Positions 22,559 to 42,424 of a DNA stretch of 60,747 nt are shown here, one piece after another. Origin of the DNA: Clostridia bacterium (GTDB taxonomy: Bacteria; Bacillota; Clostridia; Oscillospirales; Acutalibacteraceae); the NCBI GenBank assembly GCA_017531385.1, contig JAFXLD010000007.1, forward strand, positions 1 to 60,747, given 5' to 3'. The translations under genes and the position numbers were made by a program. The first letter of the stretch is position 1; each line of letters opens with the position of its first letter. The notes beneath the pieces are model-generated. The model saw only the letters and a program-made list of their open reading frames with translations. It was not told the DNA's origin and did no database searches.

Positions 22559-22819
22559 ATGGCAAGCAGCAACAAGCAGAGCCTTGTACCCGAAGCAAGA
22601 GAAGCTCTTAACAGATTCAAGATGGAAGCAGCTTCTGAAGTAGGTGTTAACCTCAAGCAGGGCTACAACGGTGACCTCACATCAAGACAGGCAGGTTCAG
22701 TAGGCGGTCAGATGGTCAATATCATATGTCCCGGAGTCCGTTTTGACTTCATAAGGAAAAACCGCAATACCCAGGGACATCAGCAGACTATTACATACAA
22801 TGTAACAGTAGGTATATAA
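22559..22819 (+). CDS. Alpha/beta-type small acid-soluble spore protein, 3' end replaced by element insertion
   Basis: SASPs coat and protect DNA in dormant spores. Residues 1-53 are a normal alpha/beta SASP ('LVPEAREALNRFKMEAASE' containing the germination-protease region; 'LTSRQAGSVGGQMV'). After residue 53 the sequence switches to 33 unrelated residues ('NIICPGVRFDF...TYNVTVGI') that belong to the mobile element. The natural ending, KKMIEAYENGMK, is found 19.7 kb away at 42388-42424 fused to the recombinase. Rejoining gives a 65-residue protein of usual family length. The C-terminal DNA-binding helix is lost in the chimera, so this copy is probably non-functional while the element is present. 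AAGGAG precedes the ATG; an upstream in-frame GTG (22547) is rejected. Confidence 0.93.
   Translation: MASSNKQSLVPEAREALNRFKMEAASEVGVNLKQGYNGDLTSRQAGSVGGQMVNIICPGVRFDFIRKNRNTQGHQQTITYNVTVGI
22712..22719 (+). other. attL core
   Basis: ATGGTCAA, shared exactly with the right junction; the flanking bases differ on both sides (G/T before, T/G after). It lies at codons 52-54 of the SASP gene. Confidence 0.88.
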
Positions 22820-22858
22820 TAAAAATCTACACAAAAACGAGTTCGTGTAGATTTTTTA
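22820..22858 (+). terminator. Terminator for the recombinase gene in the circular form
   Basis: Stem AATCTACAC / GTGTAGATT plus T-run, directly after the stop codon. In the integrated state it ends the chimeric SASP transcript; in an excised circle it would follow the recombinase gene. It also faces the convergent PIN gene. Confidence 0.85.
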
Positions 22859-22861
22859 TTG

Positions 22862-23536
22862 TTACAATATTTTTTTTAGTTCTTTTTTTAGAGTCTTTAT
22901 TTCTTTTGTAAAGTCAACCGATATGCTTTTACAATAATCACTCATCCATTGCTTTTCTCTTTCACTATAAGGAGAAAGAGAAAAACGTTTTACAAACTTT
23001 TCGAATTCAGATTTTAGTGAAACAAAAAAATCATTTGATTTTTCTATAACAGCATTGTATGTTGACAGTATCTCATTTATGGTTACTTTGTTCTCTAAAA
23101 ACAAAAGAAATAAAACCTCACAAAAAGAAAAAGGAATGACATCACTGCTTGGAAGTCGCATTAATGTTGCATGAGGACCTCCAATTTTTGTGTCATCAGT
23201 TACTATAGACATAGCTCCCAATGTTCTGGCCAATGCAATGGCATAAACCTCACCTGTATCACCAGTGTTGTAAAGAGGTCTGTCTTCTTGGTAGTAACTT
23301 TTAAATAAAAAATAGATGCCACATTCTTTTAAATAATCATCTGTTATGATGGTTATTTTTCCATCAGCAACATCATCCATGAATTTTTGCATTATATCTT
23401 GTCCATGAGTTTTGAGTTCTTGATTGACCAAAAATTCGTAAACAAAGATATTCTTGCCAAAAAGAGAAAATAAAATGTGCTGTTGATTGGCTTTATATAA
23501 ATGTATTATTACATTTGTATCTAATGATGCTTTCAT
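22862..23536 (-). CDS. PIN-domain protein (predicted ribonuclease)
   Basis: The first 130 residues fit a PIN-type nuclease: D6 in 'SLDTNVI', E96 in 'GDTGEVYAIALA' and D114/D115 in 'IVTDDTK' are candidate metal ligands. About 90 helical, Lys/Glu-rich residues follow, making it longer (224) than most VapC toxins. The ATG overlaps the stop of the ImmA/IrrE gene by 4 bp. With XRE and ImmA genes upstream it forms a three-gene cassette resembling predicted toxin-antitoxin systems with an Xre-COG2856 pair; which part neutralises which is not known. Confidence 0.78.
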   Translation of the reverse strand: MKASLDTNVIIHLYKANQQHILFSLFGKNIFVYEFLVNQELKTHGQDIMQKFMDDVADGKITIITDDYLKECGIYFLFKSYYQEDRPLYNTGDTGEVYAIALARTLGAMSIVTDDTKIGGPHATLMRLPSSDVIPFSFCEVLFLLFLENKVTINEILSTYNAVIEKSNDFFVSLKSEFEKFVKRFSLSPYSEREKQWMSDYCKSISVDFTKEIKTLKKELKKIL

Positions 23537-24336
23537 TCGTCGTCATCCTCCCAGAAAGCATCAAAATCAAAATCATCATCAGAATTAACTGGTTCAATGT
23601 CAATGGAGTCAATAGAAATATCTAAATATCCTAATGCTTTTTCTGCTGTTGCTTTTGAAATGAGATTGTTGGAGTAATTAAACTGTATCCATTTTAAATA
23701 ATCCATTGATATAGCTTTTACATTCGAAGGAATGCACAGATTTGCATCATTACCTATTGACTTTAAAATAGAACTAATTGTTTGCTCTTTTTTTTGAAGT
23801 TTTAATAATTCCAATTTTTGCTCATTTATGATAGATAAATAATTCAATCTGTTTATTGTTGTTTCAAAACTTGTATTAAATACACTTTGTAATCTAACAA
23901 TGTCCAATATTGAAAAATTAACAATATCAAATACTTCTATGATTTTCAAAAGTGCATCTTTCGGTATTAAAAAACAGGCTGCAAAAAAATTTGCTTCTAC
24001 TTCCTTTTCATCATTGCTACTTATTGTATGATTAGTATCTTCCATTGTTTGTGTTTCTGAATTCAAATGACCTAATCGGATATGACCAATTTCGTGTGCG
24101 AGAGTAAATATTTCTCTTGAATAAACAACTGATGAATTAGAAAAAATTATATATTCGGCATCTCTTTTTATTACAGCCCCTAACACTCCGTCCATAAGAG
24201 GATATCTTAGATAATAATAATTTAAAGACTGGCATGCGTCAAAAATATCATTAATACCATATGTTGAAATACCTGCAAGTCTACGAGTTTGGTCCGCAAT
24301 CTCTGCAATTTCTCTTTTTCTTCTACTACTAACCAT
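23533..24336 (-). CDS. ImmA/IrrE-family metallopeptidase
   Basis: Predicted zinc peptidase of the COG2856 type, which in ICEBs1 and Deinococcus cleaves a partner repressor. Here 'FTLAHEIGHIRLGH' provides the HExxH site (H81, E82, H85). The 267 residues include a C-terminal helical region with an acidic end ('DDDFDFDAFWEDDDE'). The ATG at 24336 is six bases after GGAGG; it overlaps the XRE gene by 8 bp. The likely target is the XRE protein encoded upstream, by analogy. Confidence 0.87.
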   Translation of the reverse strand: MVSSRRKREIAEIADQTRRLAGISTYGINDIFDACQSLNYYYLRYPLMDGVLGAVIKRDAEYIIFSNSSVVYSREIFTLAHEIGHIRLGHLNSETQTMEDTNHTISSNDEKEVEANFFAACFLIPKDALLKIIEVFDIVNFSILDIVRLQSVFNTSFETTINRLNYLSIINEQKLELLKLQKKEQTISSILKSIGNDANLCIPSNVKAISMDYLKWIQFNYSNNLISKATAEKALGYLDISIDSIDIEPVNSDDDFDFDAFWEDDDE

Positions 24337-24667
24337 TATCATCCTCCAAAATCATTCGATTATAAAGGCTTTTATTTGCAAAAAACATATCAATAATTTC
24401 CTCAATCTCTGAGAATGATGTTGATGCATTACCACCCGTGCGAAAAACTTCAACTGTTTGTTGTTCTACAACAAATGTTATGCTTGATGATGAAACACCT
24501 AAGATATCTGCAATTTTTACAATCAAATCAAAAGAAATGTCATTTTGACCTTTCTCAATTCGAGCCAATTTTTGGCGACTGATATTAAGTTGTTGAGCTA
24601 TAAATTCTTGAGTAAAGCCTTTCTGTTCACGAATTTCACGAATTCTTCCACCAATAGTTTTTTTCAT
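24329..24667 (-). CDS. XRE-family regulator of the PIN cassette
   Basis: The 112 residues have an N-terminal helix-turn-helix ('FTQEFIAQQLNISRQKLARIE', positions about 16-36 including flanks) and a C-terminal tail with 'VFRTGGNASTSFSEIEEIID'. It is the first gene of the XRE-ImmA-PIN operon. The frame is open upstream, but the promoter at 24690-24718 and AGGATGA spacing support 24667. It is a candidate substrate of the adjacent ImmA-like protease. Confidence 0.85.
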   Translation of the reverse strand: MKKTIGGRIREIREQKGFTQEFIAQQLNISRQKLARIEKGQNDISFDLIVKIADILGVSSSSITFVVEQQTVEVFRTGGNASTSFSEIEEIIDMFFANKSLYNRMILEDDNG

Positions 24668-24689
24668 AAAACTCATCCTTTCTGTTTTT

Positions 24690-24718
24690 ATTATATAACA
24701 CATTTTACTCAAAATCAA
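24690..24718 (-). promoter_or_regulatory. Promoter of the XRE-ImmA-PIN operon
   Basis: Minus strand: TTGATT (24713-24718), 17 bases, TATAAT (24690-24695). Confidence 0.75.
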
Positions 24719-24777
24719 TACATAATGTTACAAAATTATAACATTCTGTATTAAAAAATATAGAAAAATATAGGAAA

Positions 24778-24813
24778 ATAATATTTATAGAACATATGTT
24801 CTATAAATATTAT
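24778..24813. promoter_or_regulatory. 36-bp perfect palindrome with SOS-box-like core
   Basis: Every position pairs about a centre between 24795 and 24796. The core GAACATATGTTC fits the Firmicutes LexA box GAAC-n4-GTTC. It lies 60-95 bp upstream of the -35 box of the XRE operon. A LexA site, an XRE operator or a replication/recombination site are possible. Confidence 0.6.
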
Positions 24814-24984
24814 ATATAGAAAAACATAAAAAGTCAAGTGCTTTATTGAATTAAAAATAATGTCTTCTATTATAGTCTATCATAACTGTTGTATCCAAAA
24901 GACGTCAGCACATCGGACAAATTTTGCTTTTTTTGTATTACGGTAGTTCTTTTTTTGCATAATACAACTATACAAGAAGTATAT

Positions 24985-25126
24985 ATTATTACAAAATGTC
25001 CCGAAGTCCGTTTTGACTTTATACGGAAAAACCGCAATATTGCGGGACATCAACAGACTGTTACATATAACGTAACTGTAGGTATATAGCATAAATCCCC
25101 ACTTTCCCTCACGGGATGGTGGGGAT
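24985..25126 (+). pseudogene. Relic of a second recombinase 3' end with terminator hairpin
   Basis: From about 24993 the DNA is closely similar to the element's left end (22727-22819), encoding 'VRFDFIRKNRNIAGHQQTVTYNVTVGI' in parts against the tail at the left junction; a stop at 25087-25089 and an ATCCCCAC/GTGGGGAT hairpin follow (25095-25126). No recombinase body or ATGGTCAA core precedes it. It is probably the left end of an earlier, related element or a duplicated end. No promoter or start codon of its own was recognised. Confidence 0.75.
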
Positions 25127-25561: not shown

Positions 25562-26149
25562 ATGAACCGTAACATTATTATCAGAAAAAGCATCACAGAA
25601 GACAAGATTTTCAAAGAGCCCAAGACAATGCAGGTAATGTGGTATGTTCTGCTCAACGCTGATAAGGAGCAGAAACTGAAAACTACATATTTGCAGATAA
25701 CTTGCATCACAGGACTTTCAAAGCCTGCGACAGAAAAAGCATTGGAAAGCCTTAAAAACTCGGGATATATTTCAAAAAGAGTATCCGGTAAAGAGATATC
25801 CTTGAAAATCAAGAAGGATTTTCCCTATCTTATGAAGAGGAAAACTCAGGATTGTTTCAAAGTCGATGGAAACACACTTCATTTTGACTGGTTCAATGAA
25901 TATCAGACCAGACATCTGTGGGTTTACCTTTTACTCAAAGCAAATACAGAACCCGTTGCCTTTAAGTCAACTGTAATTGATAAGGGCGAATTGATGACAA
26001 AATTATCAATTCTATCAACCGCAACAGGACTTACTGTAAGTCAGGTCCGAACTGCACTTAAAAAGTTTGCAGACAGTAATTGCATTGAAGTAAAAACTAC
26101 GAATAAATACTCAATCATCAAGATTGTTGCTTATGAATCATACATATAA
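25562..26149 (+). CDS. Winged-helix protein, probable replication initiator or regulator
   Basis: The 195 residues contain two winged-helix-like segments: 'LQITCITGLSKPATEKALESL...GYISKR' (about 48-80) and 'LSILSTATGLTVSQVRTALKKF' (about 150-180). The arrangement recalls DnaD-like or plasmid initiator proteins. An AGGAGTG precedes the ATG. One TTTGCGATTTG motif lies 35 bp upstream, and three like it lie before the primase-like gene, which suggests it binds them. The exact family was not identified. Confidence 0.6.
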   Translation: MNRNIIIRKSITEDKIFKEPKTMQVMWYVLLNADKEQKLKTTYLQITCITGLSKPATEKALESLKNSGYISKRVSGKEISLKIKKDFPYLMKRKTQDCFKVDGNTLHFDWFNEYQTRHLWVYLLLKANTEPVAFKSTVIDKGELMTKLSILSTATGLTVSQVRTALKKFADSNCIEVKTTNKYSIIKIVAYESYI

Positions 26150-26152
26150 GTT

Positions 26153-26182
26153 CAGCACCCATTTAATGTAGGTGCTGTTTTT
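26153..26182 (+). terminator. Terminator after the winged-helix gene
   Basis: Stem CAGCACC / GGTGCTG with T-run; overlaps the stop of the convergent gene by two bases. Confidence 0.8.
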
Positions 26183-27419
26183 ATGCCGATTTGCGGTTAT
26201 ATCCTCTTGTAACGCCTGCTGCTTTCAGAATGTACTGAACTTTTCGTTTTGATATGCCGACTGTATCTGCAATTGTCTGATGATTCATACCGTTTGCCGC
26301 AAGCTCAATAACCTGCATTGCCTGTTCTTGCTTGTCCTGCTTGTTCTTCTGTTTTTTCAGTTCTCGTTTCGAAAGCTGAAACATACCAAGCTCAGCAATT
26401 TCATCGGGTGTAATTTCAAGTTTTTGAACAAACCAGTCATTTCTGAGCTTGTAAAAAGATTCATAATTACTGCATTTGTTACGGTCGATGCAGTTGGCTA
26501 ATGCTTTTAACTGACAATCCGGCACAGCACGAACATCATTGAACTTGTCTCTGAAAGCTTTAAGCTTGTTGTATGCAGTCTCTTTGTCATATATCTGAAC
26601 AGCAGCATTGTAATAAGAAAAACACATATACTCTCTGTATCCCGTGCAATCAAAATTCCTTAATTCCTGAAGCTTTTCAAGCGAAGCAAGTCTGCTGATG
26701 TGAAGAGCCTGTCCGAATTCGATATTTTTTGTCTTCTTTTTCGGAGCAGACTTCTTTTTCTGTGTTTTTGGCTTCAGCAGCTCTTCAAAAGTATAATAAT
26801 CAAAATCGTAATCAATAATCTTCGTTACTGTTTTGGTGTTTGAGTTTATTGTTCCGGGAATTCTTGCCAAACGAGCTATATCTGATACTTTTGAATCAAG
26901 TCCAAGTATGCAATTCGCACCGCTAAGTACCGCTTGTATATCATCGCTGATAGATTTGATTATGCTGTCTCTGATTTTAAGACCTTTTTCATTTACAGAA
27001 TTATCTGACAGACGATAAGGAATGCTATTTTTAAAGATGTAGTACAAATGCAGACCTCTTCCTGTATTGATAATCAGATTAGGTTTTTTTAGTCGATTTG
27101 ATTCAATTGCGTCCTTTAATGATAAATATGTATGGTCAACACCCCAGCCTACTGCTTTAGTATATTCCTCATCATGGAAATCCAGGTCAAAGAAAAGAGC
27201 ATTTATCTGACGACACTTACCTGATTTTCTTCTTCGCCCGCAAAAACCGTTTATTGTTACGTAAATATCCTCATCAGATGATAGTTTTGTATCAAGAAAA
27301 TCCTTTGCCTTTACAACTTCGTATATCTTATCGGTTTCGGGTTTAAATTTCTGAATAATGTAATTACTGTTTTTGTCATCGTGAAAGAGCATTGCTGAAA
27401 AAAGTTCTTTATCGGTCAT
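26181..27419 (-). CDS. Primase-like replication protein with C-terminal helix-turn-helix
   Basis: Probably starts replication of the element. The 412 residues contain segments typical of archaeo-eukaryotic primase-type plasmid and ICE replication proteins ('INALFFDLDFHDEEY' with acidic DxD, 'LIINTGRGLHLYYIF', 'ARLARIPGTINSN'), a Lys-rich linker near 220-235, and a C-terminal helix-turn-helix ('NHQTIADTVGISKRKVQYIL'). The start at 27419 follows AAGGTGTGAATAA. Three iteron-like repeats lie 85-130 bp upstream. A catalytic polymerase function is inferred from motifs only. Confidence 0.75.
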   Translation of the reverse strand: MTDKELFSAMLFHDDKNSNYIIQKFKPETDKIYEVVKAKDFLDTKLSSDEDIYVTINGFCGRRRKSGKCRQINALFFDLDFHDEEYTKAVGWGVDHTYLSLKDAIESNRLKKPNLIINTGRGLHLYYIFKNSIPYRLSDNSVNEKGLKIRDSIIKSISDDIQAVLSGANCILGLDSKVSDIARLARIPGTINSNTKTVTKIIDYDFDYYTFEELLKPKTQKKKSAPKKKTKNIEFGQALHISRLASLEKLQELRNFDCTGYREYMCFSYYNAAVQIYDKETAYNKLKAFRDKFNDVRAVPDCQLKALANCIDRNKCSNYESFYKLRNDWFVQKLEITPDEIAELGMFQLSKRELKKQKNKQDKQEQAMQVIELAANGMNHQTIADTVGISKRKVQYILKAAGVTRGYNRKSA

Positions 27420-27503
27420 TTTTATTCACACCTTTCGGATTAATGATGAAAGATGTGAACTGAAAACTTTTTTTTGTACAGTTTTTTCAGGAATATTTTT
27501 TTG

Positions 27504-27546
27504 TTTGCGATTTCCTTGATATTTGTTTGCGATTTGATTGCGATTT
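27504..27546. repeat. Iteron-like TTTGCGATTT repeats
   Basis: Copies at 27504-27513, 27526-27535 and 27537-27546 (ATTGCGATTT), starting 22 and 11 bp apart, so on one helix face. A further copy is at 25517-25527 before the winged-helix gene. Confidence 0.65.
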
Positions 27547-27596
27547 GTTTGTTATCTGTTTGTGATGATGAAAAATAATTGCTTTCAGCAAAAAAA

Positions 27597-30032: not shown

Positions 30033-33000
30033 TTAAGCCGCAATTGCATTTGCATTGATAGATTTGATAATTTTCATAATGCCTGTCCATACAACTGCAT
30101 CTGTAAAGATATCGACAATCGTACCGTTATCGGTAAACGGAGCTTCCTGCATAACTGACATATCTTTCATCATACCATTCTGAACAATGTAATTGATAAT
30201 CTGATTGACAAAATAAATCTGTCTGTCATCAAGATTGACATCATTGAGATACTTTGAAAATGCTTCTTTTGCCGTGTTCATATCAAGACCGACAATTTCT
30301 CTTACAAGTTCTCCGAGAGGCTTATCCTGATATTCGTTTGCATAATCATCCTTTGTGCCAAGCTCTGACCAGAGGATTTTTTCAAGAGATTTGATATCTT
30401 CTGCAGTCAGGGGCTGATTTGTGTGCAGTTTTGCAATAGCAGGGCTGTCCATATGGTTTCTGATGTAGTGATTTACCTTCATTTTGTAATTCACCAAATC
30501 ATCACTGCCAAGCTCTGATTCATTCCAGTCAATATTGATAATATAATCATCCATATCAATATCAATCGGCGGAGCTACATAATCAGGAATATATTTTATA
30601 AGGTCACGGAGTTTTTCTCTGATGATTTCAAAATCATTGATATCGGCAGTTTCGAGATAATCCGTATGCAGAATTTTCTCAAATATTTCACTCTGTTCCA
30701 CAACTTCGGGAATAGTTGCAATCTTTGTCAGCTCTCTGACCTTCTTTTTAAGGTCCTTTTTGCCTCTTTTGTATGTATTACCTATGATATAGCCCAGTTC
30801 GATTGCATAAATAAGAGCATCAAAACGGACAGCATTGATTTCGTCATTATAGGGCAGAATCAGCGGTGCAACTTCATCTTTGAGCTGTTGAAGGTCTGCG
30901 GGTGTGAGAACATTCAGCTTTTCTGCATCGGCATACATATCAATATATTTCAGATGCTGTTTAACTGAGAAATTATCACGATTCAGCTCCTTGATTTTGT
31001 AAATGACATCTTCTTTGAGTGCAGTTCTGAATACTTTCAGAGCATCAGTCTGATAAGCCAAATCCTGCAGTTTATAGAGCATTGTTGTTTTAATGTTGAA
31101 GATTCTTTCCTGAACGGACAGCGTTGCAGGAACTTCCTTACCGGGAGGATTCATTCTGAAAAACTCAAAGTTTCCGCAGAAATCGAAGATATAGAAAATA
31201 TCCTTGTCCTTTCCGTCAATAAGCCCCTTGCAAAGACGGGTACCTCTGCCAATCATCTGCCAGAATTTTGCCTTGCTCATAACCTTTTTGAAGAATACAA
31301 GATTCACAACTTCGGGCACGTCAATACCTGTATCCATCATATCGACGGATACAACAATCTGAGGCATTTTCTTCGGGTCTGAAAATTCATCAATAAGGCT
31401 CTGAGCATAATTTGTGTAATTATCAATCACACGACAGAAACCGTTTTTGCTGTAATTCGGGTATTCCTTATTGAATATCTCGCAAATCTTCTCTGCATGA
31501 CGGTGATTCTTTGCAAAAATAATCGTTTTGCCGATTTTACTGCCTGAATCAATCTTAATTCCCTTTTCCATAAGGATTGAAAGGACTTTTTTGATTGTGT
31601 CTTCATTGAAAATTTTTTCATTAAGGGCAGAGCTTTCAATTGAATCGGGGATTTCACCGTCTTCGAGAGCAAACATTTCTTCATAAGTGGCTTTATCTTC
31701 TTCTGAAAGGTCGTCATAGACAATACCTTCACTCATAAATTTAAGAGTTGTTTCAACACTCATAAAATCAACAAGATAACCGTCCTGAACAGCCTGAGCA
31801 AGTTCATAACCGTAAGTGGGAACACCGCTTTCAAGCTCAAAAATGCCGTAAGTGTTCTTATCGATTTCATCTCTGGGAGTCGCAGTGAGTCCCACAAGAT
31901 GAGCATCGAAATAATTGAAAATATCTCTGTATTTGTTGTAAATGCTTCGGTGAGCTTCGTCGCAGATGATAAGGTCAAAGTGACCTACAGTGTAGAGCTT
32001 TCCGCCGTCTTCGTCCTTTGCATCGTCAATGCAGTTCATCATGGTCTGATATGTGGAGAAAACACCACGGGCATTGTAGTTTTCTTTATCTTCGCAGAGA
32101 TTCACAACAGACAGATTGGGAAGCAGGTTCACAAAAGACCTTTTTGCCTGAGTGACAAGTGAATTTCTGTCCGCAAGGAAAAGTACATTCTTGACCCAAC
32201 CGTGTCTGAGCAGTACATCGACGATTGAGATAACTGTTCTTGTTTTACCTGAACCTGTTGCCATAACAAGCAGAGCCTTGCGACGGTTTTCATCGTCAAA
32301 AGCACGGCAGACAGCCTTGATTGCTTCTTTCTGATAATATCTGCCTGAAATATCGTCACTGATACGGACATTATTAAGGTGTGTCCGCATAGTGAGTTTG
32401 TTGAATTCCTTTTCGAGGTCACGCTTTGAATAAAAACCGCTGACTTTGTGTTCGGGATAATAATTATCGTTCCAGATTCGTGTGTCAAAGCCGTTTGTAA
32501 GGAAGATTATCGGTCTTCTGCCGAATTTCTGTTCAAGCAGGTCTGCATAAAGTTTTGCCTGCTGTCTGCCGACAGCAACATCCTTGCAGGTGCGTTTTGC
32601 TTCAATAACGGCAAGAGGTCTGCCGTCATCACCGAAAAGGACATAATCGGCAAAACCGACTTCGGATTTATTGGGCATACCGGGAAGTTCATATTCATTT
32701 ATCCAGTCTTTGCCCTCGGTCCAGCCTGCATCAATGAGCATTGTGTCTATATAGAGCTTTCGTGTCTGATATTCCGAAATATCAAGAGGCTTGGGAACAT
32801 AAGTCTGCTGCTGTTCCTCACGGCGGGCAGTAAGCTCCTCTTTGAGAGCCTTGTTTTCTGCCATTAATTGCTCGAGATTAAGCTCCATTGCGTGGTCAAC
32901 AACAGTTTCGTTCTGTTTATGTACAAGAGAAGCATCAAAATGCTGTTCGGTGTAATTTGCACCGTAAAAATATGCAACGAGGTCAAGAAAAACGTGAAGG

Positions 33001-33338
33001 TTTTCAAGACAGAGCATAGCCTGTTCTTCTGTGATTTTACGACCTGTATGAGCGGCAATGTTGCCTGATTTTCTTATAAAGTCAAGACGGCGGAATACAT
33101 CATCGCCGACAATATCACGGAATGATGCATCTGACATAAGAGCCTGCAGATTATCGGCATAGGGCATTACAAGGAACTTGTCCACGGAGTACATCCATTT
33201 TATGGCAAACTCCATTGCCCGACGACAAGCAATGATTGAAGACGCCGGGTCAATATGTAATATTCTTTCTGCAGTTATCGCCACATCAGAAAATGTATCA
33301 AATTGATTGTCTTGCTTTAAGAAATCAAAGTTGGTCAT
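30033..33338 (-). CDS. hsdR: Type I restriction enzyme R subunit
   Basis: Translocase-nuclease subunit that cuts unmodified DNA together with HsdM and HsdS. The 1101 residues have an N-terminal DUF4145-like domain (1-140, 'FIRKSGNIAAH'), a PD-(D/E)xK nuclease core with 'VIEAKRT' near residue 245, Walker A 'ATGSGKT' near 361, DEAH box 'ICDEAHRS' near 457, 'GLTATPRDE', and the helicase motif 'MIGRGTRLCKG'. All key motifs appear intact. It is the last gene of the leftward operon hsdM, membrane gene, hsdS, HEPN-like gene, hsdR. Confidence 0.95.
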   Translation of the reverse strand: MTNFDFLKQDNQFDTFSDVAITAERILHIDPASSIIACRRAMEFAIKWMYSVDKFLVMPYADNLQALMSDASFRDIVGDDVFRRLDFIRKSGNIAAHTGRKITEEQAMLCLENLHVFLDLVAYFYGANYTEQHFDASLVHKQNETVVDHAMELNLEQLMAENKALKEELTARREEQQQTYVPKPLDISEYQTRKLYIDTMLIDAGWTEGKDWINEYELPGMPNKSEVGFADYVLFGDDGRPLAVIEAKRTCKDVAVGRQQAKLYADLLEQKFGRRPIIFLTNGFDTRIWNDNYYPEHKVSGFYSKRDLEKEFNKLTMRTHLNNVRISDDISGRYYQKEAIKAVCRAFDDENRRKALLVMATGSGKTRTVISIVDVLLRHGWVKNVLFLADRNSLVTQAKRSFVNLLPNLSVVNLCEDKENYNARGVFSTYQTMMNCIDDAKDEDGGKLYTVGHFDLIICDEAHRSIYNKYRDIFNYFDAHLVGLTATPRDEIDKNTYGIFELESGVPTYGYELAQAVQDGYLVDFMSVETTLKFMSEGIVYDDLSEEDKATYEEMFALEDGEIPDSIESSALNEKIFNEDTIKKVLSILMEKGIKIDSGSKIGKTIIFAKNHRHAEKICEIFNKEYPNYSKNGFCRVIDNYTNYAQSLIDEFSDPKKMPQIVVSVDMMDTGIDVPEVVNLVFFKKVMSKAKFWQMIGRGTRLCKGLIDGKDKDIFYIFDFCGNFEFFRMNPPGKEVPATLSVQERIFNIKTTMLYKLQDLAYQTDALKVFRTALKEDVIYKIKELNRDNFSVKQHLKYIDMYADAEKLNVLTPADLQQLKDEVAPLILPYNDEINAVRFDALIYAIELGYIIGNTYKRGKKDLKKKVRELTKIATIPEVVEQSEIFEKILHTDYLETADINDFEIIREKLRDLIKYIPDYVAPPIDIDMDDYIINIDWNESELGSDDLVNYKMKVNHYIRNHMDSPAIAKLHTNQPLTAEDIKSLEKILWSELGTKDDYANEYQDKPLGELVREIVGLDMNTAKEAFSKYLNDVNLDDRQIYFVNQIINYIVQNGMMKDMSVMQEAPFTDNGTIVDIFTDAVVWTGIMKIIKSINANAIAA

Positions 33339-35175: not shown

Positions 35176-35757
35176 CTATTTTACAATTAAAATAGATATA
35201 ACAGAAACAATTAAAGACATTATTGAAATTAATCCGGAAAATATAGCCATTGCATATTCTCGATTACTCATATTTTCAACTTCATTTTCTGCAATTCTTA
35301 TCAATTGAGCAACTGTAAATGATACAAAAACTACTGCAATACATATAACAAAATTCGTATTAAAGAAAATTAAAATAATAGAAAATAATGCAACAAGATA
35401 TAATGTTAATCGAATCAAACGGAATATCAAAGAATTGGCAATATTTATCAATGAGTCTACTGCTGAAAAATATTTAATATTTTTCTTCGATACAAATAGC
35501 ATATTTTTAAAAACTCTTAATGTGTTAAAAAAGATTCTTGCCTGTTTCCAAATCTTACAATTTATATGTGAAAAATCTTTTTCCTTCAATATCTCTTTTC
35601 GCTTTTGAATTACTTCTTCTCTTTGGATTGTTTCTGATTGTTTTTTATCAATTTCTTTTTTTGTATCTGCATCTTGTTCTGCTCTTACGATTGCCTCTGC
35701 TAATTTATCATAATCAAATTCTTGTTTTTCGATTTTTATAACAATTTTTTTACTCAC
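35176..35757 (-). CDS. Hypothetical membrane protein inside the restriction operon
   Basis: Not recognised. From a GTG at 35757, 193 residues: a Lys/Glu-rich, probably coiled-coil cytoplasmic N-terminus (about 1-75), then about three hydrophobic helices ('LIRLTLYLVALFSIILIFF', 'FVICIAVVFVSFTVAQLI', 'IFSGLISIMSLIVSVISILI'). The GTG lies nine bases after GGAGG and overlaps the hsdM stop by 8 bp, so it is translationally coupled. A membrane protein is not a normal part of type I systems; defence-associated roles are inference. Confidence 0.75.
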   Translation of the reverse strand: MSKKIVIKIEKQEFDYDKLAEAIVRAEQDADTKKEIDKKQSETIQREEVIQKRKEILKEKDFSHINCKIWKQARIFFNTLRVFKNMLFVSKKNIKYFSAVDSLINIANSLIFRLIRLTLYLVALFSIILIFFNTNFVICIAVVFVSFTVAQLIRIAENEVENMSNREYAMAIFSGLISIMSLIVSVISILIVK

Positions 35758-37222
35758 TGAGCATCTCCTCCAACTCTGCAAGTTCTTTTGAAATTTCCAT
35801 TTGCAACTCGTTTAACTCAGCAAGAATCTCGCTTGTAGGCGGATATTCCACAGCAATATACTCCGTCTTTTTATACTTATTGATTGAAAGGTCATAGTCA
35901 TTGCTGATTATTTCATCCTTAGGCACAAAGAATGATTTTTCTGTTCTTTCTCTGTCCTTTTCGGTTTCAAGGTTTCTGAATCTTTCAATTATATCGTGAA
36001 TATCATTCTCGCTGACTGCTGTTCTCTTATCGTCAAGGCTGTAGCCGTCTGCCTGCATATCATAGAACCATACATTATCCGTACCGCCGTGACCCGTCTT
36101 TGTGAAAATCAGAATACCTGTTGAAACTCCCGCATAGGGCTTGAACACACCCGATGGCATTGAAATAACAGCCTCAAGTCTGTTGTTTTCAATCAACTCC
36201 TTACGGATAGCCTTGTGTGCAGTTGACGAACCGAAAAGAACTCCGTCGGGAACGATACATGCACATCTTCCGCCGATTTTAAGCATACGCAGGAACAGAG
36301 CAAGGAACAAAAGCTCCGTTTTCTTTGTTTTGCAGACTTTCAGCAAATCTGCAGATACGGTATCAGCATCAAGACTGCCCTTGAAAGGCGGATTTGCAAG
36401 AATTATTGAGTATCTGCCTGTGTCAGTATTTCTGTCAGAAAGGCTGTCACGGTAGTCGATATTGGGATTGTCAACACCGTGTGTCATCATATTCATTGCC
36501 CCCACACGGAGCATTGTTCTGTCCATATCGTAGCCGAAAAACATATGATTGTTGTAATGGTCCTTTTTCTCACGGTTATAGAAAATCTCATTGCGATACT
36601 TTTCCTTGAGATATTCACCCGATGCAACAAGGAATCCCGATGTGCCGCATGCAGGGTCACAGATTGTATCGTCGGGCTTCGGGTCAAGAAGCTCAACCAT
36701 CATTCTGATAATATGTCTGGGAGTTCTGAACTGACCGTTTACACCTGCAGTTGCAAGTTTTGAAAGAAGGCTTTCGTAAACATCGCCCTTGGTGTCGTTC
36801 TCAATTTCTTTTGCCATATCAATATACAGACTGTCAAGGGCATCGACAATCTTTGAAAGAAGCTGAGGTGTGGGAATCTTGAAAATGGCATCACTCATAT
36901 ATTTTGCATAAGTGCTTTCCTTGTTGCCGTGAAGATTCTTGATAAACGGAAAAATCTCCGTCTGCATAAGCTCATACATCTTCTCCGCAGGCAAATCACG
37001 GAATACGGACCACTTATACTGGTCGTGTCCCTCAAACATAGATGTATAGGGCAACTCGAGCATCATGCTGCTCTTTGCCTTCTTCGCATCTGTTTCATCC
37101 AAATCGTGAATGAACATAAGATATGTCATCTGTTCAACAACATCAAGGGGGTTTGTGATACCGCCTGTCCAGAACATTTCCCATATCGCATCAATTTTAT
37201 TTTTAAGTTCACCTGTTAACAT
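35750..37222 (-). CDS. hsdM: Type I DNA methyltransferase (M subunit)
   Basis: Adenine-N6 methyltransferase. The 490 residues have an N-terminal helical domain, the SAM motif 'DPACGTSGF' (about 188-196), the catalytic 'NPPF' (about 277-280) and a C-terminal helix bundle that contacts HsdS. First gene of the operon; it starts at 37222. Motifs complete, so modification should be active. Confidence 0.95.
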   Translation of the reverse strand: MLTGELKNKIDAIWEMFWTGGITNPLDVVEQMTYLMFIHDLDETDAKKAKSSMMLELPYTSMFEGHDQYKWSVFRDLPAEKMYELMQTEIFPFIKNLHGNKESTYAKYMSDAIFKIPTPQLLSKIVDALDSLYIDMAKEIENDTKGDVYESLLSKLATAGVNGQFRTPRHIIRMMVELLDPKPDDTICDPACGTSGFLVASGEYLKEKYRNEIFYNREKKDHYNNHMFFGYDMDRTMLRVGAMNMMTHGVDNPNIDYRDSLSDRNTDTGRYSIILANPPFKGSLDADTVSADLLKVCKTKKTELLFLALFLRMLKIGGRCACIVPDGVLFGSSTAHKAIRKELIENNRLEAVISMPSGVFKPYAGVSTGILIFTKTGHGGTDNVWFYDMQADGYSLDDKRTAVSENDIHDIIERFRNLETEKDRERTEKSFFVPKDEIISNDYDLSINKYKKTEYIAVEYPPTSEILAELNELQMEISKELAELEEMLSE

Positions 37223-37413: not shown

Positions 37414-37417
37414 CGAT

Positions 37418-38395
37418 TTATGTTTGCCAGAGGTAGTGGTCAGCTACGACAGAAGGTCGATTGTGTCCGAGGTTTTGAGAGCATTTTAATAATGCTAATC
37501 TGTCATAGCAGACATGTTTTTTGTCGTCACGGCAATGATATGCAGAGCGGACATCTGTGAAACCTTTCTTCAGAGTACCGTCCGGGTTGTAATATTGCTG
37601 AACTTCGGATTTATCGGTATATGTTATTACAAGACGGTTGTGATAGAGAATCATTCTTTCGTTTTTATAGTCGTTTCTGTTTCGGGCGTATTTTTCATAA
37701 ACTGATTTTGCATATTCAGCCCTCAACGAGTGAATGTCGATATCGGGTATTTTATCAAACACTTTGTTTTGTTGAGCTTCTTGCATTTTTTCAATGACAA
37801 AGGCTATATCATCTTCACTGCCGACAATTTCACTTATTCTTTTTCGACCGCCTTTACCATTCTTGACAAAAATATAGTATTTACCGTCTTTCATTTGCAA
37901 GCAATCGCCCCGTAATGCGGTTATTTCTCTTCGGCGCAATCCGGTGCATCGGCAAAATCTGATAAAGTCATCATTTTTACCTGTTTTATACCTGCCGTCC
38001 CTCTTAGCAGAATGACGGCTTCTTTTTATATTCTTTCTCACCCGGGGTGGAGTGGGAATGAATTCTTTTGTACTGCAGTGAAATAGTTTTGCAAGTGCAG
38101 AAGCCTGCAGTTTGATTGTGTAAGCAGAATAATTTTTGTCGATATTGTATTTTAGGTATTCATTTACATACTGTCTGCAGTCTGCAAGATTCTTTGCTTT
38201 ATGTTGATTCTTACAGTAAACAGCAAAGGCAATGCACTGTTGCTGGTATGCATCAAAAGTTCCGTATGAATATATCTTATCTGATGTTTCACCGATTACT
38301 TTGTCCACATGTTTGCTCTGACCGATAGCAAGCATACTGCGAAGCTCTTCATCCACCTGCTGTTTAAGACTCTTTTTGTTCTTGTGTCCCATCAT
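37418..38395 (-). CDS. Tyrosine recombinase/integrase
   Basis: Site-specific recombinase of the phage-integrase family. The 325 residues have an N-terminal SAM-like DNA-binding half and a catalytic half with R154 ('GLRRRE'), K181 ('NGKGGRKR'), H222/R225 ('HSLR'), H311 ('LGH') and Y321 ('DHY'), so a complete catalytic set. The Tyr is only five residues from the end. It is not at an element boundary, unlike the serine recombinase, so it may resolve multimers, invert a segment or belong to an older element. No inverted sites were recognised beside it. Confidence 0.88.
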   Translation of the reverse strand: MMGHKNKKSLKQQVDEELRSMLAIGQSKHVDKVIGETSDKIYSYGTFDAYQQQCIAFAVYCKNQHKAKNLADCRQYVNEYLKYNIDKNYSAYTIKLQASALAKLFHCSTKEFIPTPPRVRKNIKRSRHSAKRDGRYKTGKNDDFIRFCRCTGLRRREITALRGDCLQMKDGKYYIFVKNGKGGRKRISEIVGSEDDIAFVIEKMQEAQQNKVFDKIPDIDIHSLRAEYAKSVYEKYARNRNDYKNERMILYHNRLVITYTDKSEVQQYYNPDGTLKKGFTDVRSAYHCRDDKKHVCYDRLALLKCSQNLGHNRPSVVADHYLWQT

Positions 38396-38672: not shown

Positions 38673-40010
38673 TCAATTATACTTTTCTTTCAGATATCTT
38701 TTGAACAGGAATGTGCAGTAGTAAGGGAATGTGTACACATTATCATTGTGTCCGATATTGCCTGCACAGAATTTTATGCCAAATGCAATATCCTCATATT
38801 TTTCACTTTCGACAAGTGCTTTCAGAGATTTTGTTTTATTGTTCGATGACTTGACTTCAACCGGTACAAGATTGTTTGCGGTTCTTACAAAGAAATCCTG
38901 TTCAAGGGTAGCATTTTCCTTTTTGTAATAGTATAAGCCATAACCTGATTTTACAAGTGCTTCACCAACAATGCTTTCGTACAATGCACCTTTATAAATA
39001 TCAAGATTCTTATTTGCTCTCAGGTCTTCCTGTGCTTCATCGTCAAGTAACGAGACGAATAATCCTGTATCACAGAAGTAAACCTTGAATTTATCGGGGT
39101 CATAATTTCCTTTCAACGGAAGGTCAGGACTGTTGAGGCAATAGCAGAGATGTATCATACCTGCATCCTGCAGCCATTCAATACATCCACGGTAATCCTT
39201 AAATCTTGCACCTTTTTCAACCTTGGAAAGCTGGAATTTTTTATTCTCCTTTGAAAGTTGGAAAGGAATACTGTTGAATACATTCATTATTCTTGCCTGG
39301 TCAAGACCTGTTGCATATTTTCTTATATCTTCTTCGTAGTCTGCTATAAGCTGACGCTGAATTTCAAGAGTTCCTTCAAAGGTATTGTTCTCAATATATG
39401 TTTTTACAACAGCAGGCATACCGCCAAGAATGCAATAATCCAGAAACAGGGAAGAAAATATTGAATGCTGAAGCTGTGAGAACGGTTTTTCTTCAAGCAT
39501 ATGAGCAAGCATATCATCAATCACATCTGAAGAATAACCTTTTGCCCACAAGAATTCTTCAAAGTCAAGTGAATACATAGAATAGTCTGTTTTATTGCCG
39601 ACACTATTACTTTCAATTCTGTTGTAATTGATACCGAGAAGAGACCCTGAACAGATAACATCAAATCGACCGTCAATATTAAAGAATTTCAACGAAGTGG
39701 CAATTTCGGGGAATTCCTGAATTTCATCAAAAAATATAAGTGTTTCACCGGGGATGAATCTGAATGAAGGCTCTATCATTGAGATGTTTTTAATAACAGA
39801 TGCGGCATCATATCCGTCCGATATTATCATTTTATATTTTTCTGCAGTCACGAAATTGATTTCGATTACGCTGGTATAATTCTCTTTTGCAAACTTTCGG
39901 ATAGATTCTGTTTTTCCAATCTGACGGGGACCTTTGACAATCAAAGGCATTCTTTTTTTGTTGTTTTTCCAGTCAGTAAGAAAAAGGTCAATCTTTCGTT
40001 TAAGATACAT
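38673..40010 (-). CDS. AAA-type ATPase with DUF4143 domain
   Basis: Function unknown; common in mobile regions. The 445 residues have Walker A 'GPRQIGKTE' and Walker B 'LIFFDEIQE' in an AAA_14-type domain, then DUF4143 with 'VPVEVKSSNN', which resembles a PD-(D/E)xK nuclease strand. AAGGAGGCGATTTT precedes the ATG. The promoter region carries three repeats spaced exactly 33 bp. Confidence 0.87.
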   Translation of the reverse strand: MYLKRKIDLFLTDWKNNKKRMPLIVKGPRQIGKTESIRKFAKENYTSVIEINFVTAEKYKMIISDGYDAASVIKNISMIEPSFRFIPGETLIFFDEIQEFPEIATSLKFFNIDGRFDVICSGSLLGINYNRIESNSVGNKTDYSMYSLDFEEFLWAKGYSSDVIDDMLAHMLEEKPFSQLQHSIFSSLFLDYCILGGMPAVVKTYIENNTFEGTLEIQRQLIADYEEDIRKYATGLDQARIMNVFNSIPFQLSKENKKFQLSKVEKGARFKDYRGCIEWLQDAGMIHLCYCLNSPDLPLKGNYDPDKFKVYFCDTGLFVSLLDDEAQEDLRANKNLDIYKGALYESIVGEALVKSGYGLYYYKKENATLEQDFFVRTANNLVPVEVKSSNNKTKSLKALVESEKYEDIAFGIKFCAGNIGHNDNVYTFPYYCTFLFKRYLKEKYN

Positions 40011-40041
40011 AAAATCGCCTCCTTAGAATGGTTGCAATATT

Positions 40042-40153
40042 ATTATACACAAATCATAGCGAATATTCAACTATATTTTACACTTTTATGAGGGAATATT
40101 TGCCCTTTTGTTACACTTTTATGAGCGAATGATGGGTGTATTTTTACACTTTT
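40042..40153 (-). promoter_or_regulatory. ATPase-gene promoter with three 33-bp-spaced repeats
   Basis: Minus strand: TTGAAT (40065-40070), 17 bases, TATAAT (40042-40047). Upstream are TTACACTTTTATGAG at 40078-40092 and 40111-40125 and TTACACTTTT at 40144-40153, exactly 33 bp apart (three helical turns). Likely binding sites for a regulator. Confidence 0.7.
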
Positions 40154-40180
40154 CATTTTTTTGACACAAAAATACAGAAA

Positions 40181-40310
40181 AACCGACTGATTTCTGACAA
40201 TTCAGATTCAGTCAGTTTTTGCTTTTGTATCGTTGGAACGATAGTTTTATGAAAAATTGAATGATTTTAATGGTTTTTAGCCGTCGGAAGTGAGATTTCG
40301 ACGGTTTTTG
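40181..40310 (+). terminator. Two terminator-like hairpins in the 40.0-40.6 kb gap
   Basis: An imperfect CCGACTGA/TCAGTCAG stem with T-run (40181-40220) and CCGTCG/CGACGG with T-run (40281-40310). The rest of 40311-40532 holds no gene I can support. Confidence 0.6.
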
Positions 40311-40532
40311 TAATATATGTACAAGAAAAATCCTGAAAGTTTGTGCAATATTTTTTCAAAAATTCTGTAGGAGAGAATTTTACCCCATTTTGAACTTTCA
40401 TCATTAGTCCGACAAGAACGAGAAAGATTCTGAAATTCCAAAAAATCTGTTCAGAAAATTATCATTGCTATCCGGCAATCATAATTACTTTAAATTTGAT
40501 GATTTGGATTTTTATGAATTGAACATCGGATT

Positions 40533-40554
40533 TTGTTAAAAATATTTTTAACAA
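40533..40554. promoter_or_regulatory. 22-bp perfect palindrome before the 43-aa gene
   Basis: Arms TTGTTAAAAAT / ATTTTTAACAA. It ends just before the AAGGAGG ribosome binding site and overlaps a possible -10 region, so it could be an operator or an RNA hairpin controlling translation. Confidence 0.65.
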
Positions 40555-40566
40555 GGAGGACTTAAT

Positions 40567-40698
40567 ATGAAGTCTACAAAAGAAATGAATCAGGTTGCAG
40601 AAAACATCTGGATTAAATACTTCTCTGAAGTGCTTGTAGAAAGCTCATTGCTCACTCAGGAAGAGGCAGACTTAATCATATCAACCTGTGCGGCATAA
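40567..40698 (+). CDS. 43-residue protein upstream of the serine recombinase
   Basis: Not recognised. A single helical, acidic protein ('MNQVAENIWIKYFSEVLVE', 'LTQEEADLIISTCAA') with a strong AAGGAGG seven bases before the ATG. It is 88 bp before the recombinase gene in the same direction, with no terminator seen between. Small proteins beside serine integrases often act as directionality factors; this role is inference. Confidence 0.7.
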   Translation: MKSTKEMNQVAENIWIKYFSEVLVESSLLTQEEADLIISTCAA

Positions 40699-40786
40699 TT
40701 GCCGTTACATATCGGAAAAATTTATACATTGTATTCATTAAAAAAAGTAATTTATAATTTAACTAAATAACAAAGGAGTTTTTATA

Positions 40787-42424
40787 ATGAATTTATTATC
40801 AGTACAGAACGATTTCGCAAAAGGTATTACAATCAATCAGATGAATTGCAGAGTTGCATATTACTGCAGAGTTTCAACAGAAAAAGGTGACCAGCTTAAC
40901 TCACTTGAAAATCAGAAGCAATATTTTGAAAATTATATAAAAGAGAGTGAAAACTGGAAGCTTGCAGGTGCATACATTGATAAGGGCAAGTCAGGTACAT
41001 CATTGAAGAACCGTGTTGAATTCAACAGAATGATTGCAGATGCAAAAAGAGGCAAGTTTGATTTGATTGTTACAAAAGAAGCTTCAAGATGGGCAAGAAA
41101 TATCGTTGATGCAATCAGCGTTGTCCGTGAATTGCTGCAGTACGGTGTAGGTGTAATTTTCCAGAATGACGGAATCTGTACATTTGATAAAGATGCTGAA
41201 ATGTATCTTTCAATTATGAGTACCATGGCTCAGAATGAATCAAGAAAGATTTCTACACGAGTTGCATGGGGACACAAAATGGCAATCAAGAACAAGCACG
41301 TTCTCGGCAAGGCACCTTTCGGATATGCAAACGATGACAGAAAACTGAAAATCAATCCCACAGAGGCTGAAATCGTAAAAAAGCTTTACACAATGTACTC
41401 AACAGGGAATTACAGTCTTAAGGACCTTGAAAGATATTTCTATGAACAGGGCTACCGTAACAGAAACGGTAACAAGCTTGCCCACAACACTCTCGGTAAT
41501 ATAATCTGCAATCCTAAGAATATGGGTTATTATGTAGGCGGAAAAGTTGTTATCGTTGATATGTTCACAAAGAAACAGCAATTCCTTCCCGAAGAAGAAT
41601 GGAAGATGGAATATGCTCCCGACATTGTTCCTCCCATCGTTGATGAGGATACATGGCGAAAGGCTTTTGATATTTTCAAGGAAAGAAGTGAAGATGTCAA
41701 AACATACCGAAATGTATGCAACAAGGATAATCTCCTCACAGGTAAAATGTATTGTGCACACTGCGGAGCACCTTATTATAAAAGAGAACGTGGCAGATGG
41801 GTATGCTCCTACAAAAAAGAGCACGGCAAGGATTCATGTCCCTCACTTATAATCAGTGAAGATGAAATCAGACCTATTCTGCTTGATGTGTTCAGACAGA
41901 CATCTTCTGCATCCGAAATGGCTATCAGAAAAATGATGCAGGCATTTGAAAAGATGCTTCAGGACGATGACACCGAGAAAATAATCAGGGCCTATCAGAA
42001 AGACCTTGATACGCTCAGAGAAAGACAATCAGTTCTTCTTGACAAGTATCTTGACGGAGAAATTCCCAAGTCCCTTTATGACACTAAGAATGGCGAAATT
42101 AATGAAAAAATCGGTGAACTTGAAAATTCAATCGGTGAAATTGAAGGAAGCCGCTTGACTAAAGAAGCGTATGCTGATAAACTTAATACTATAAGAAAAA
42201 GACTTGTTCAGGCAGAAAAGGATGTTGACAGCGGCATCATTACTCCTGACTTCGTAAAGCACTATATCGACAGAATCAATGTATCAACCGAGGGCAACAT
42301 TATCAACCTTGAAATCACACTTTTTTCAGGAATCAAGCTCAATTCGGTAATTGAAAAGAACGGATGTCGTCCGGGTACTATGGTCAAGAAGATGATCGAG
42401 GCTTACGAAAACGGCATGAAATAA
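40787..42424 (+). CDS. Large serine recombinase (integrase) with C-terminus supplied by the host gene
   Basis: Catalyses integration and probably excision of the element. The 545 residues have the resolvase domain with nucleophile Ser30 ('YYCRVSTEKGDQ'), a recombinase domain, a zinc ribbon (about 321-352, CAHC...C...C), and a coiled coil (about 385-475). Residues 534-545 (KKMIEAYENGMK) are not its own: they are the 3' end of the SASP gene. In the excised circle the frame continues instead into the 33 residues now fused to the SASP, giving 566 residues. AAGGAG precedes the ATG. The attP core thus lies inside this gene. Confidence 0.93.
   Translation: MNLLSVQNDFAKGITINQMNCRVAYYCRVSTEKGDQLNSLENQKQYFENYIKESENWKLAGAYIDKGKSGTSLKNRVEFNRMIADAKRGKFDLIVTKEASRWARNIVDAISVVRELLQYGVGVIFQNDGICTFDKDAEMYLSIMSTMAQNESRKISTRVAWGHKMAIKNKHVLGKAPFGYANDDRKLKINPTEAEIVKKLYTMYSTGNYSLKDLERYFYEQGYRNRNGNKLAHNTLGNIICNPKNMGYYVGGKVVIVDMFTKKQQFLPEEEWKMEYAPDIVPPIVDEDTWRKAFDIFKERSEDVKTYRNVCNKDNLLTGKMYCAHCGAPYYKRERGRWVCSYKKEHGKDSCPSLIISEDEIRPILLDVFRQTSSASEMAIRKMMQAFEKMLQDDDTEKIIRAYQKDLDTLRERQSVLLDKYLDGEIPKSLYDTKNGEINEKIGELENSIGEIEGSRLTKEAYADKLNTIRKRLVQAEKDVDSGIITPDFVKHYIDRINVSTEGNIINLEITLFSGIKLNSVIEKNGCRPGTMVKKMIEAYENGMK
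42380..42387 (+). other. attR core
   Basis: ATGGTCAA, identical to 22712-22719; followed at once by the SASP codons for KKMIEAYENGMK (42386-42424). Confidence 0.88.

What the first reader, a model, noticed from the sequence alone, without database searches (positions are those of the whole stretch)
22559..42424. A 19.7-kb element has split an alpha/beta SASP spore gene and can be removed precisely on paper
The sequence shows the same 8-bp core (ATGGTCAA) at both ends. Joining the outer sides gives an uninterrupted 65-residue SASP ending GGQMVKKMIEAYENGMK, a family-typical ending. This fixes attL, attR, attB and the target gene. SASP genes as insertion targets of serine-recombinase elements are, to my knowledge, not a standard described case.
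Basis: partly seen in the sequence, partly recalled or inferred. Interest (0 to 1): 0.9.

Follow-up and report, generated by a model that had tools for sequence, protein, structure and literature searches.

The report
Recombinase element splits lone spore gene
A mobile DNA element has cut a bacterium's only detected gene for a spore DNA-protecting protein and borrows the end of that gene to finish its own cutting enzyme; related elements sit at the same spot in many related bacteria.

Summary
Confirmed, and wider than reported. A 19,668-bp element (crossover AA at 22718-22719 and 42386-42387) splits a 65-codon alpha/beta SASP gene, the only PF00269 match in this 83%-complete genome. Four genus members have the gene whole, two of them beside the same MATE gene. 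The true core is 2 bp: 13 attP palindromes centre on the AA of the first KKM lysine codon. At attR the large serine recombinase (LSR) ends on the SASP's last 12 codons. At attL the SASP stub reads in frame into a conserved tail, 33 codons in 23 of 24 complete cases. Excision on paper restores SASP and swaps the LSR's C-terminus. Of 398 family genomes sampled, 23 (18 of 135 genera) carry this attL. Seventeen SASP-tailed LSRs plus one inverted relative form a clade (support 0.95); sisters sit in sigK (skin-like) and spoIVA. Published intervening elements in the passages I read lie in mother-cell genes where the cell is stated; SASP is classically a forespore gene. Against: no intact circle was found, 7 of 20 attL genomes searched showed no LSR, and sporulation-linked excision is unproven. 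New variant of a known kind.

The parts
22559..22717 (+). SASP 5' part, codons 1-53, ending GGQMV
   Evidence: PF00269 E=8e-24; only PF00269 match in own genome
22718..22719 (+). attL crossover dinucleotide AA
   Evidence: centre of attP palindromes, 175 of 286 pairs over 13 elements against 102 for the next-best centre; similarity to empty-site genomes G005 and G010 ends at 22719; AA in 25 of 25 attL sites
22718..22819 (+). in-frame 33-codon tail plus stop (element side of attL); predicted C-terminus of the LSR in the excised circle
   Evidence: 33 codons in 23 of 24 complete attL sites, 36 in G386; low pN/pS in near pairs
22862..23536 (-). 224-aa protein, no Pfam match (PIN-like by eye only)
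23533..24342 (-). ImmA/IrrE-type protein (Peptidase_M78)
   Evidence: PF06114 E=4.9e-16
24329..24676 (-). XRE-type helix-turn-helix regulator
   Evidence: PF01381 E=6.4e-15
24988..25089 (+). second, diverged copy of the tail; sequence after it matches the left end of the elements in G001 and G004
   Evidence: 84% repeat
25562..26149 (+). RepL/winged-helix-like protein, possible replication initiator (marginal)
   Evidence: PF05732 20.5 bits, cut-off 20.3
26181..27419 (-). primase-like protein with C-terminal HTH (weak, both matches below cut-off)
   Evidence: NF001641 E=0.0022, PF13384 E=1.4e-4
27500..27554 (.). iteron-like short direct repeats, possible replication origin
   Evidence: the repeat finder D2/D5
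30033..33338 (-). type I restriction subunit HsdR
   Evidence: PF04851 E=8.4e-39, PF08463
34072..35160 (-). type I specificity subunit HsdS
   Evidence: PF01420 E=5.5e-24
35750..37222 (-). type I methylase HsdM
   Evidence: PF02384 E=1.9e-66
37418..38395 (-). tyrosine-recombinase-like protein (weak)
   Evidence: PF00589 21 bits, below cut-off 27.1
38673..40010 (-). AAA_14/DUF4143 ATPase
   Evidence: PF13173 E=5.9e-23, PF13635 E=2.4e-37
40567..40698 (+). 43-aa ORF upstream of the LSR; similar small ORFs (judged by eye) precede 10 of 16 other clade LSRs; accessory or directionality-factor candidate by position only
   Evidence: no Pfam match over cut-off
40787..42424 (+). large serine recombinase, 545 aa; last 12 residues encoded by SASP codons
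   Evidence: PF00239, PF07508, PF13408; clade
42386..42387 (+). attR crossover dinucleotide AA
42386..42424 (+). SASP 3' part, codons 54-65 plus stop (KKMIEAYENGMK), in frame with the LSR

Best explanation
This is a site-specific, LSR-driven integrative element (about 5.2, 7.1, 15.7 and 19.7 kb in four examples measured) whose attB is the AA of the first Lys codon of the conserved GGQMV-KKM motif of the alpha/beta SASP gene, which is usually single in this bacterial family. SHOWN by sequence: the cut gene, the empty sites, the 2-bp centre, one LSR clade at one codon, the SASP-encoded LSR end at attR, the conserved in-frame tail at attL, and an LSR more alike between hosts than the host flank is. 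INFERRED: attP lies inside the LSR's own 3' end, so integration replaces the LSR's 33-residue tail by 12 SASP residues and excision reverses this while restoring SASP. Which product the two LSR forms favour is unknown; I think it most likely that the C-terminus marks the integrated or excised state and so biases activity or stability, as attP inside the BPs repressor gene does for that repressor. INFERRED and less certain: excision is coupled to sporulation, and because SASP is classically made in the forespore, whose chromosome is inherited, the excised circle would have to be kept (plasmid-type replication genes occur in some elements) or re-integrate after germination.
For: Empty sites in G005, G008, G009, G010. 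attL in 23 of 398 family genomes, 18 of 135 genera. SASP-tail LSRs in 16 of 300 family genomes, 13 genera, 30 of 41 LSR matches having been read. Clade of 17 SASP-tail LSRs plus L010, support 0.952, with the last 14 residues of the SASP-tail LSRs removed first. L010 sits at the same AA in the opposite orientation, as central-dinucleotide polarity predicts (PMC3783163, passages). attP symmetry. Tail 33 codons in 23 of 24 complete sites, pN/pS 0.04-0.59 in the nine pairs at most 17% diverged. A natural, decayed LSR-into-tail junction in G388. LSR 98.9% against MATE 83.5% nucleotide identity, G000 against G004. Tails identical in three genera, G226, G277, G059. Sister LSRs in sigK and spoIVA, joint clade 23 of 23, support 0.995. 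GPR family in 20 of 24 and a full-length sigma-G-like protein in 20 of 23 genomes. RepA_N E=6.4e-18 in G154, Mob_Pre E=1.5e-7 in G230.
Against: No intact circular form or long LSR-plus-tail ORF in 398 genomes, and no attP match to two patterns in viral contigs. The tail alone found nothing in plasmid or phage records. Of 24 attL genomes, 20 were searched for the LSR and 7 (G028, G059, G155, G177, G197, G226, G256) showed none at E<=1e-60. Of 17 SASP-tail LSR genomes, 4 (G098, G103, G138, G205) had no attL or SASP match. In 8 of the 13 paired elements attL and attR are on different contigs, so pairing is assumed. Sigma-G hits are all below the curated cut-off. Strict sigma-G promoter pattern in 0 of 58 SASP upstreams. 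More diverged tail pairs give pN/pS up to 0.74. The sigK sister elements show no conserved tail in the LSR frame. The genome is 83% complete, so a second SASP could be missing. No directionality factor identified.
Confidence: 0.8

Rival explanations
1. Passive parasite: the LSR only uses a highly conserved codon stretch of spore formers as a landing site. Insertion simply knocks out SASP; there is no programmed excision, and spores are weaker or the host hardly sporulates.
For: No circular form seen; attL without a detected LSR in 7 of 20 genomes searched; several LSR upstream regions show an ordinary TATAAT-like -10 box by eye. Similar pN/pS in 16 cut and 16 intact SASP genes may only mean recent insertion. 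Sigma-G hits are below the curated cut-off.
Against: The GPR family and a sigma-G-like factor are kept in most bearers tested. Both SASP halves stay open and conserved. Sister LSRs sit in sigK, where excision is programmed in other bacteria (PMC5025042, passages).
Confidence: 0.4
2. The attL product, SASP residues 1-53 plus the 33-residue tail, is itself the functional and selected protein (a modified SASP), and the tail is not an LSR segment.
For: The tail is in frame with SASP in 25 of 25 attL sites read, and is conserved. No LSR-plus-tail ORF was seen intact.
Against: LSR sequence runs directly into the tail in the G388 relic. Diverged tail copies not fused to SASP exist in the window, G155, G108 and G156. 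In-frame reading is equally forced if the tail belongs to the co-linear LSR frame. The test meant to separate the two readings was inconclusive.
Confidence: 0.12
3. Assembly or binning artefact.
For: The window is from a fragmented, 83%-complete genome of unnamed origin.
Against: Five elements have attL and attR on one contig (G000, G154, G230, G238, G225). The same junctions recur in many genomes and in human faecal records MT837325.1 and MT838687.1. A related empty site exists.
Confidence: 0.02

Closest known systems
skin element of sigK (B. subtilis SpoIVCA; C. difficile CD1231/CD1234)
   Same: LSR element splitting a sporulation gene; the sister LSRs in this same bacterial family sit in sigK
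   Different: sigK acts in the terminal mother cell (PMC4191935, PMC5025042, passages); SASP is classically a forespore product. Target, site and LSR tail differ. CD1231 and SpoIVCA were not aligned here.
SP-beta prophage in spsM (SprA/SprB)
   Same: precise LSR excision restores a sporulation gene (PMC4191935, passages)
   Different: Full prophage; mother-cell-only excision was shown there. No virion gene was recognised among the 19 window-element ORFs scanned with Pfam.
gin element in gerE (B. cereus) and yin in yabG (C. botulinum)
   Same: element in a sporulation gene; gin lacks phage genes (PMC5595907, PMC10747680, passages)
   Different: yin is said to be unique to one strain; the SASP element recurs in many genera. 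No host-encoded recombinase C-terminus is mentioned in the passages read.
Mycobacteriophage BPs integration-dependent immunity
   Same: attP lies inside a phage coding sequence, so integration changes a protein's C-terminus, by 33 residues (PMC4557955, abstract and passages)
   Different: There the repressor is changed; here the recombinase would be, and the host target gene supplies the replacement end.

Membership tests
Large serine recombinase (LSR) | Resolvase, Recombinase and zinc beta-ribbon domains | tested here: met
   PF00239, PF07508, PF13408 all over cut-off
Large serine recombinase (LSR) | attP palindrome centred on a 2-bp crossover | tested here: met
   13 elements, AA centre 175 of 286 pairs against 102 for the next of 41 centres; best centre in 12 of 13; crossover chemistry itself not tested
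Sporulation-gene intervening element | splits a sporulation gene; removal restores the frame | tested here: met
Sporulation-gene intervening element | excision during sporulation restores the gene | not testable with these tools
   needs culture; no circular form found
Sporulation-gene intervening element | target expressed in the mother cell (published cases where the cell is stated in the passages read) | not testable with these tools
   the alpha/beta SASP of SP-beta is SigG/forespore controlled (PMC8270828, passage); expression in this host unknown
Sporulation-gene intervening element | element-encoded recombination directionality factor | tested here: inconclusive
   43-aa ORF upstream of the LSR, similar by eye in 10 of 16 other clade members; function unknown
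Prophage | virion structural genes | tested here: not met
   none among the 19 window-element ORFs scanned with Pfam; PHROGs not run, other short ORFs not scanned
Integrative and mobilizable element | relaxase | tested here: not met
   none among the 19 window-element ORFs scanned; a relative, G230, has Mob_Pre E=1.5e-7

The most novel reading that the evidence does not exclude
A lineage of serine recombinases has specialised on sporulation genes and, in the SASP branch, built a state-reading switch. Integrated, the enzyme ends with the host's SASP residues; excised, it ends with its own conserved 33-residue tail (last residue uncharged in 24 of 24 complete tails; perhaps a stability or directionality tag). 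Excision restores the cell's only alpha/beta SASP in the forespore, and the element survives in the spore as a replicating circle that re-integrates after germination: an inheritable, reversible rearrangement rather than the terminal mother-cell one of skin.
Probability: 0.3. Interest if true: 0.92.

Novelty: new variant of a known kind. Interest (0 to 1): 0.76.

Why it matters
[quoted passage not shown] A recurrent element in the single detected SASP gene breaks that logic and makes a sharp question testable: how can a forespore gene be interrupted and still serve? The recombinase C-terminus exchange would be a simple way for an integrase to know whether it is integrated. The conserved SASP attB also gives a defined landing site, and a naturally matched set of LSR and att pairs, in this family.

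Tried and rejected
Considered and dropped: (a) the 8-bp repeat as the core: by itself not above chance, and the only bases common to all elements at the junction are AA. (b) Search for an excised circle: tail profile in 398 genomes, two attP patterns in viral contigs, tail alone in plasmids and phages; nothing intact found. (c) Test whether sigK sister elements carry the same tail out of the sigK frame, which would separate LSR use from fusion-protein use: three attL sites read, tails not alike, inconclusive. (d) The other end of the inverted relative L010: no tail found in its genome, best E 1.28. (e) Strict sigma-G promoter pattern upstream of SASP: 0 of 58 (shuffled mean 0.44); a different conserved block is visible by eye in many, not all, of them. 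(f) MT837325.1, filed as a bacteriophage, as an excised element: rejected; it is an attR with chromosome-like genes beyond, judged by eye. (g) Selection compared between 16 cut and 16 intact SASP genes that I chose: alike (pooled pN/pS 0.128 and 0.122), but insertion age unknown, so weak. (h) LSR relatives in viral contigs: 13 loci, all about 30-34% identical and not of this clade by identity; not followed. (i) Two scripts printed nothing because of bad patterns and were rewritten. One search picked a wrong ORF for L039 and found none for L040; one search read both. Limits of the counts: one search scored at most 4 LSR candidates a genome and at most 20, so genome counts are lower bounds.
Full report
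CHECK OF THE OBSERVATION. The window holds the first 53 codons of an alpha/beta SASP gene at 22559-22717 and its last 12 codons plus stop at 42386-42424. The 8-bp repeat ATGGTCAA is present at both ends but occurs five times in the window against 3.2 expected, so it proves nothing alone. The proof is comparative. Of 11 genomes of the genus, 7 have a SASP match: four whole (G005, G008, G009, G010) and three cut at the same profile position 48 (G000, G001, G004); G002, G003, G006 and G007 have none. In G010 the two flanks of the window element lie about 200 bp apart, with the MATE gene beside them; G009 also has MATE there. In the window's own genome this is the only PF00269 match, at 83% completeness. 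In the family sample, 233 of 300 genomes have a match and, by my count of the table, 212 of these have exactly one.

THE SITE. The only bases that attL and attR share at the junction in every element are the AA of the first Lys codon in GGQMV-KKM. For 13 elements with both ends, the attP halves form an inverted repeat centred on that AA: 175 of 286 scored pairs, against 102 for the next-best of 41 centres; AA is the best centre in 12 of 13 (G154: 9 against 10). In 8 of these 13 the two ends are on different contigs and their pairing is assumed. Four examples on one contig measure about 5.2 kb (G154), 7.1 kb (G230), 15.7 kb (G238) and 19.7 kb (window), worked out and the window coordinates. A fifth, G225, also has both ends on one contig.

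THE RECOMBINASE BORROWS THE END OF ITS TARGET. The window LSR (40787-42424) has the three LSR domains and ends ...GTMV-KKMIEAYENGMK: its last 12 residues are SASP codons. In 300 family genomes, 39 had an LSR match at E<=1e-60. Of the 41 matches, 30 were given loci and read; 16 of these 30 (16 genomes, 13 genera) end on a SASP C-terminus. On the other side, the cut SASP reads in frame into a tail in 25 of 25 attL sites read (24 genomes and MT838687.1); 24 tails are complete, of which 23 have 33 codons and one (G386) has 36. In the 15 tails aligned, P and R are invariant at two columns and R, H and Y nearly so at three. Beyond the attP arm, near pairs mostly show few amino-acid changes: G000-G004, 6 synonymous against 1 non-synonymous; G028-G157, 7 against 1; but G000-G001, 2 against 4; pN/pS reaches 0.74 in diverged pairs. 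Excision would give the LSR this tail. I saw no intact circular form in 398 genomes. G388 holds a decayed LSR fragment (89.5% identical to the G238 LSR over 86 residues) that runs, through a frameshift, straight into a tail; this is direct evidence that the two can be contiguous.

DISTRIBUTION AND TRANSFER. The tail profile hit 33 of 398 genomes at E<=0.01: 23 are SASP-plus-tail (18 of 135 genera), 3 are tails without SASP (G388, G108, G156), and 7 are weak hits that I did not count as attL. G225 is counted though its SASP is also cut near codon 28. With G001 there are 24 attL genomes; 20 were searched for the LSR, 13 have it and 7 do not at E<=1e-60, and 4 of 17 SASP-tail LSR genomes show no attL. 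Between G000 and G004 the LSR is 98.9% identical in DNA while the neighbouring MATE and metallophosphoesterase-like genes are 83.5% and 86.2%, and much of the cargo does not match. Tails in G226, G277 and G059, three genera, are identical. Human faecal cases are MT837325.1 (attR) and MT838687.1 (attL), both filed as bacteriophage.

WHAT IT IS RELATED TO. With the last 14 residues of the SASP-tail LSRs removed, 17 of them plus L010 form one clade, support 0.952. L010 ends at the same AA but on the reverse strand of a SASP gene, as expected if the central dinucleotide sets orientation (PMC3783163, passages). The sister group is L042-L045, whose 3' ends run into a sigma-factor gene (best SigK, SigE next; fragments below the whole-protein cut-offs), plus L046, which runs into spoIVA (PF20439 E=1.2e-37); the joint clade holds 23 of 23 terminals, support 0.995. 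More distant LSRs L048 and L050-L054 lie in a Mn-catalase-family gene that I read as cotJC, L048 beside a CotJB gene (the name cotJC is recalled). L047, L049 and L055, also in that wider group, adjoin non-sporulation genes (L049 by eye). So SASP is one target of an LSR group that repeatedly, though not always, settled in sporulation genes. An LSR of another lineage (nearest L021, about 31%) lies beside the SASP gene near codon 28 in G194, G195 and G225.

HOW IT MAY WORK. The GPR family PF03418 (recalled as the protease that degrades SASPs) is present in 20 of 24 genomes tested (missing G001, G006, G007, G225). A full-length sigma-G-like protein is present in 20 of 23 (weaker hits only in G006, G018, G277), none over NCBI's cut-off. 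This fits a sporulating host but does not prove it. Published excision of skin and SP-beta is confined to the mother cell, whose DNA is not inherited (PMC4191935, PMC5025042, passages). SP-beta's own SASP gene is under forespore SigG (PMC8270828, passage). If the same holds here, useful excision must happen in the forespore and be reversible or accompanied by maintenance of the circle. Elements carry plasmid-type genes that could allow this: RepA_N in G154 (E=6.4e-18), Mob_Pre (1.5e-7) and a below-cut-off Rep_OBD match (1.4e-4) in G230, a marginal RepL match and iteron-like repeats in the window. A short ORF, similar by eye, precedes the LSR in the window and in G004, G001, G268, G225, G154, G018, G157, G238, G230 and MT837325.1 (11 of 17 examined, some with short upstream sequence). 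I call it a directionality-factor candidate by position only. The main rival is simple knock-out by a parasite, and the missing circles and the attL genomes without an LSR count for it.

NOVELTY. No held paper found in five searches describes a SASP gene split by a recombinase element; most subscription papers and preprints are not covered. The large LSR survey PMC10083194 has no 'acid-soluble' in its main text (passages; supplements not read). The C-terminus exchange resembles BPs integration-dependent immunity (PMC4557955, abstract and passages), but with the recombinase as the altered protein and the host gene as donor. I file it as a new variant of sporulation-gene intervening elements.

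Noticed in passing
window 22718-24987: An extra 2.27-kb segment (ImmA/IrrE-type, XRE and an unidentified gene) lies between two tail copies; in G001 and G004 the single tail is followed directly by what follows the second copy here. G155 has a similar double-tail arrangement about 3 kb apart.
   Followed up: partly
L185, L181, L184: A second LSR lineage lies beside the SASP gene near codon 28 in G194, G225 and G195, so the gene has at least two insertion sites.
   Followed up: partly
L127 1286-7399; G298:C26 58686, 63653, 71218: The SASP 5' end (upstream region and codons 1-28) is repeated around islands in G154 and G298, as if an island carries its own replacement 5' end.
   Followed up: no
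L048, L050, L051, L052, L053, L054; L046: LSRs adjoin halves of a cotJC-like gene and of spoIVA in family members.
   Followed up: partly
L230 4001-4198 (PV036440.1 7271-7468): Ruminococcus phage NatCom_28775 carries an intact alpha/beta SASP gene annotated as hypothetical; SP-beta sspC is a known precedent.
   Followed up: no
L148, L231 (MT837325.1, MT838687.1): Two human faecal records filed as bacteriophage are chromosome-element junctions of this element family.
   Followed up: yes
G270:C56 66162, 72382, 78776: sigK-profile matches lie in three consecutive pieces on one contig, suggesting two insertions in one sigK gene.
   Followed up: no
G000 contigs, e.g. L020-L026: The own genome holds 12 further serine-recombinase matches at E<=0.001 besides the window LSR.
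   Followed up: no
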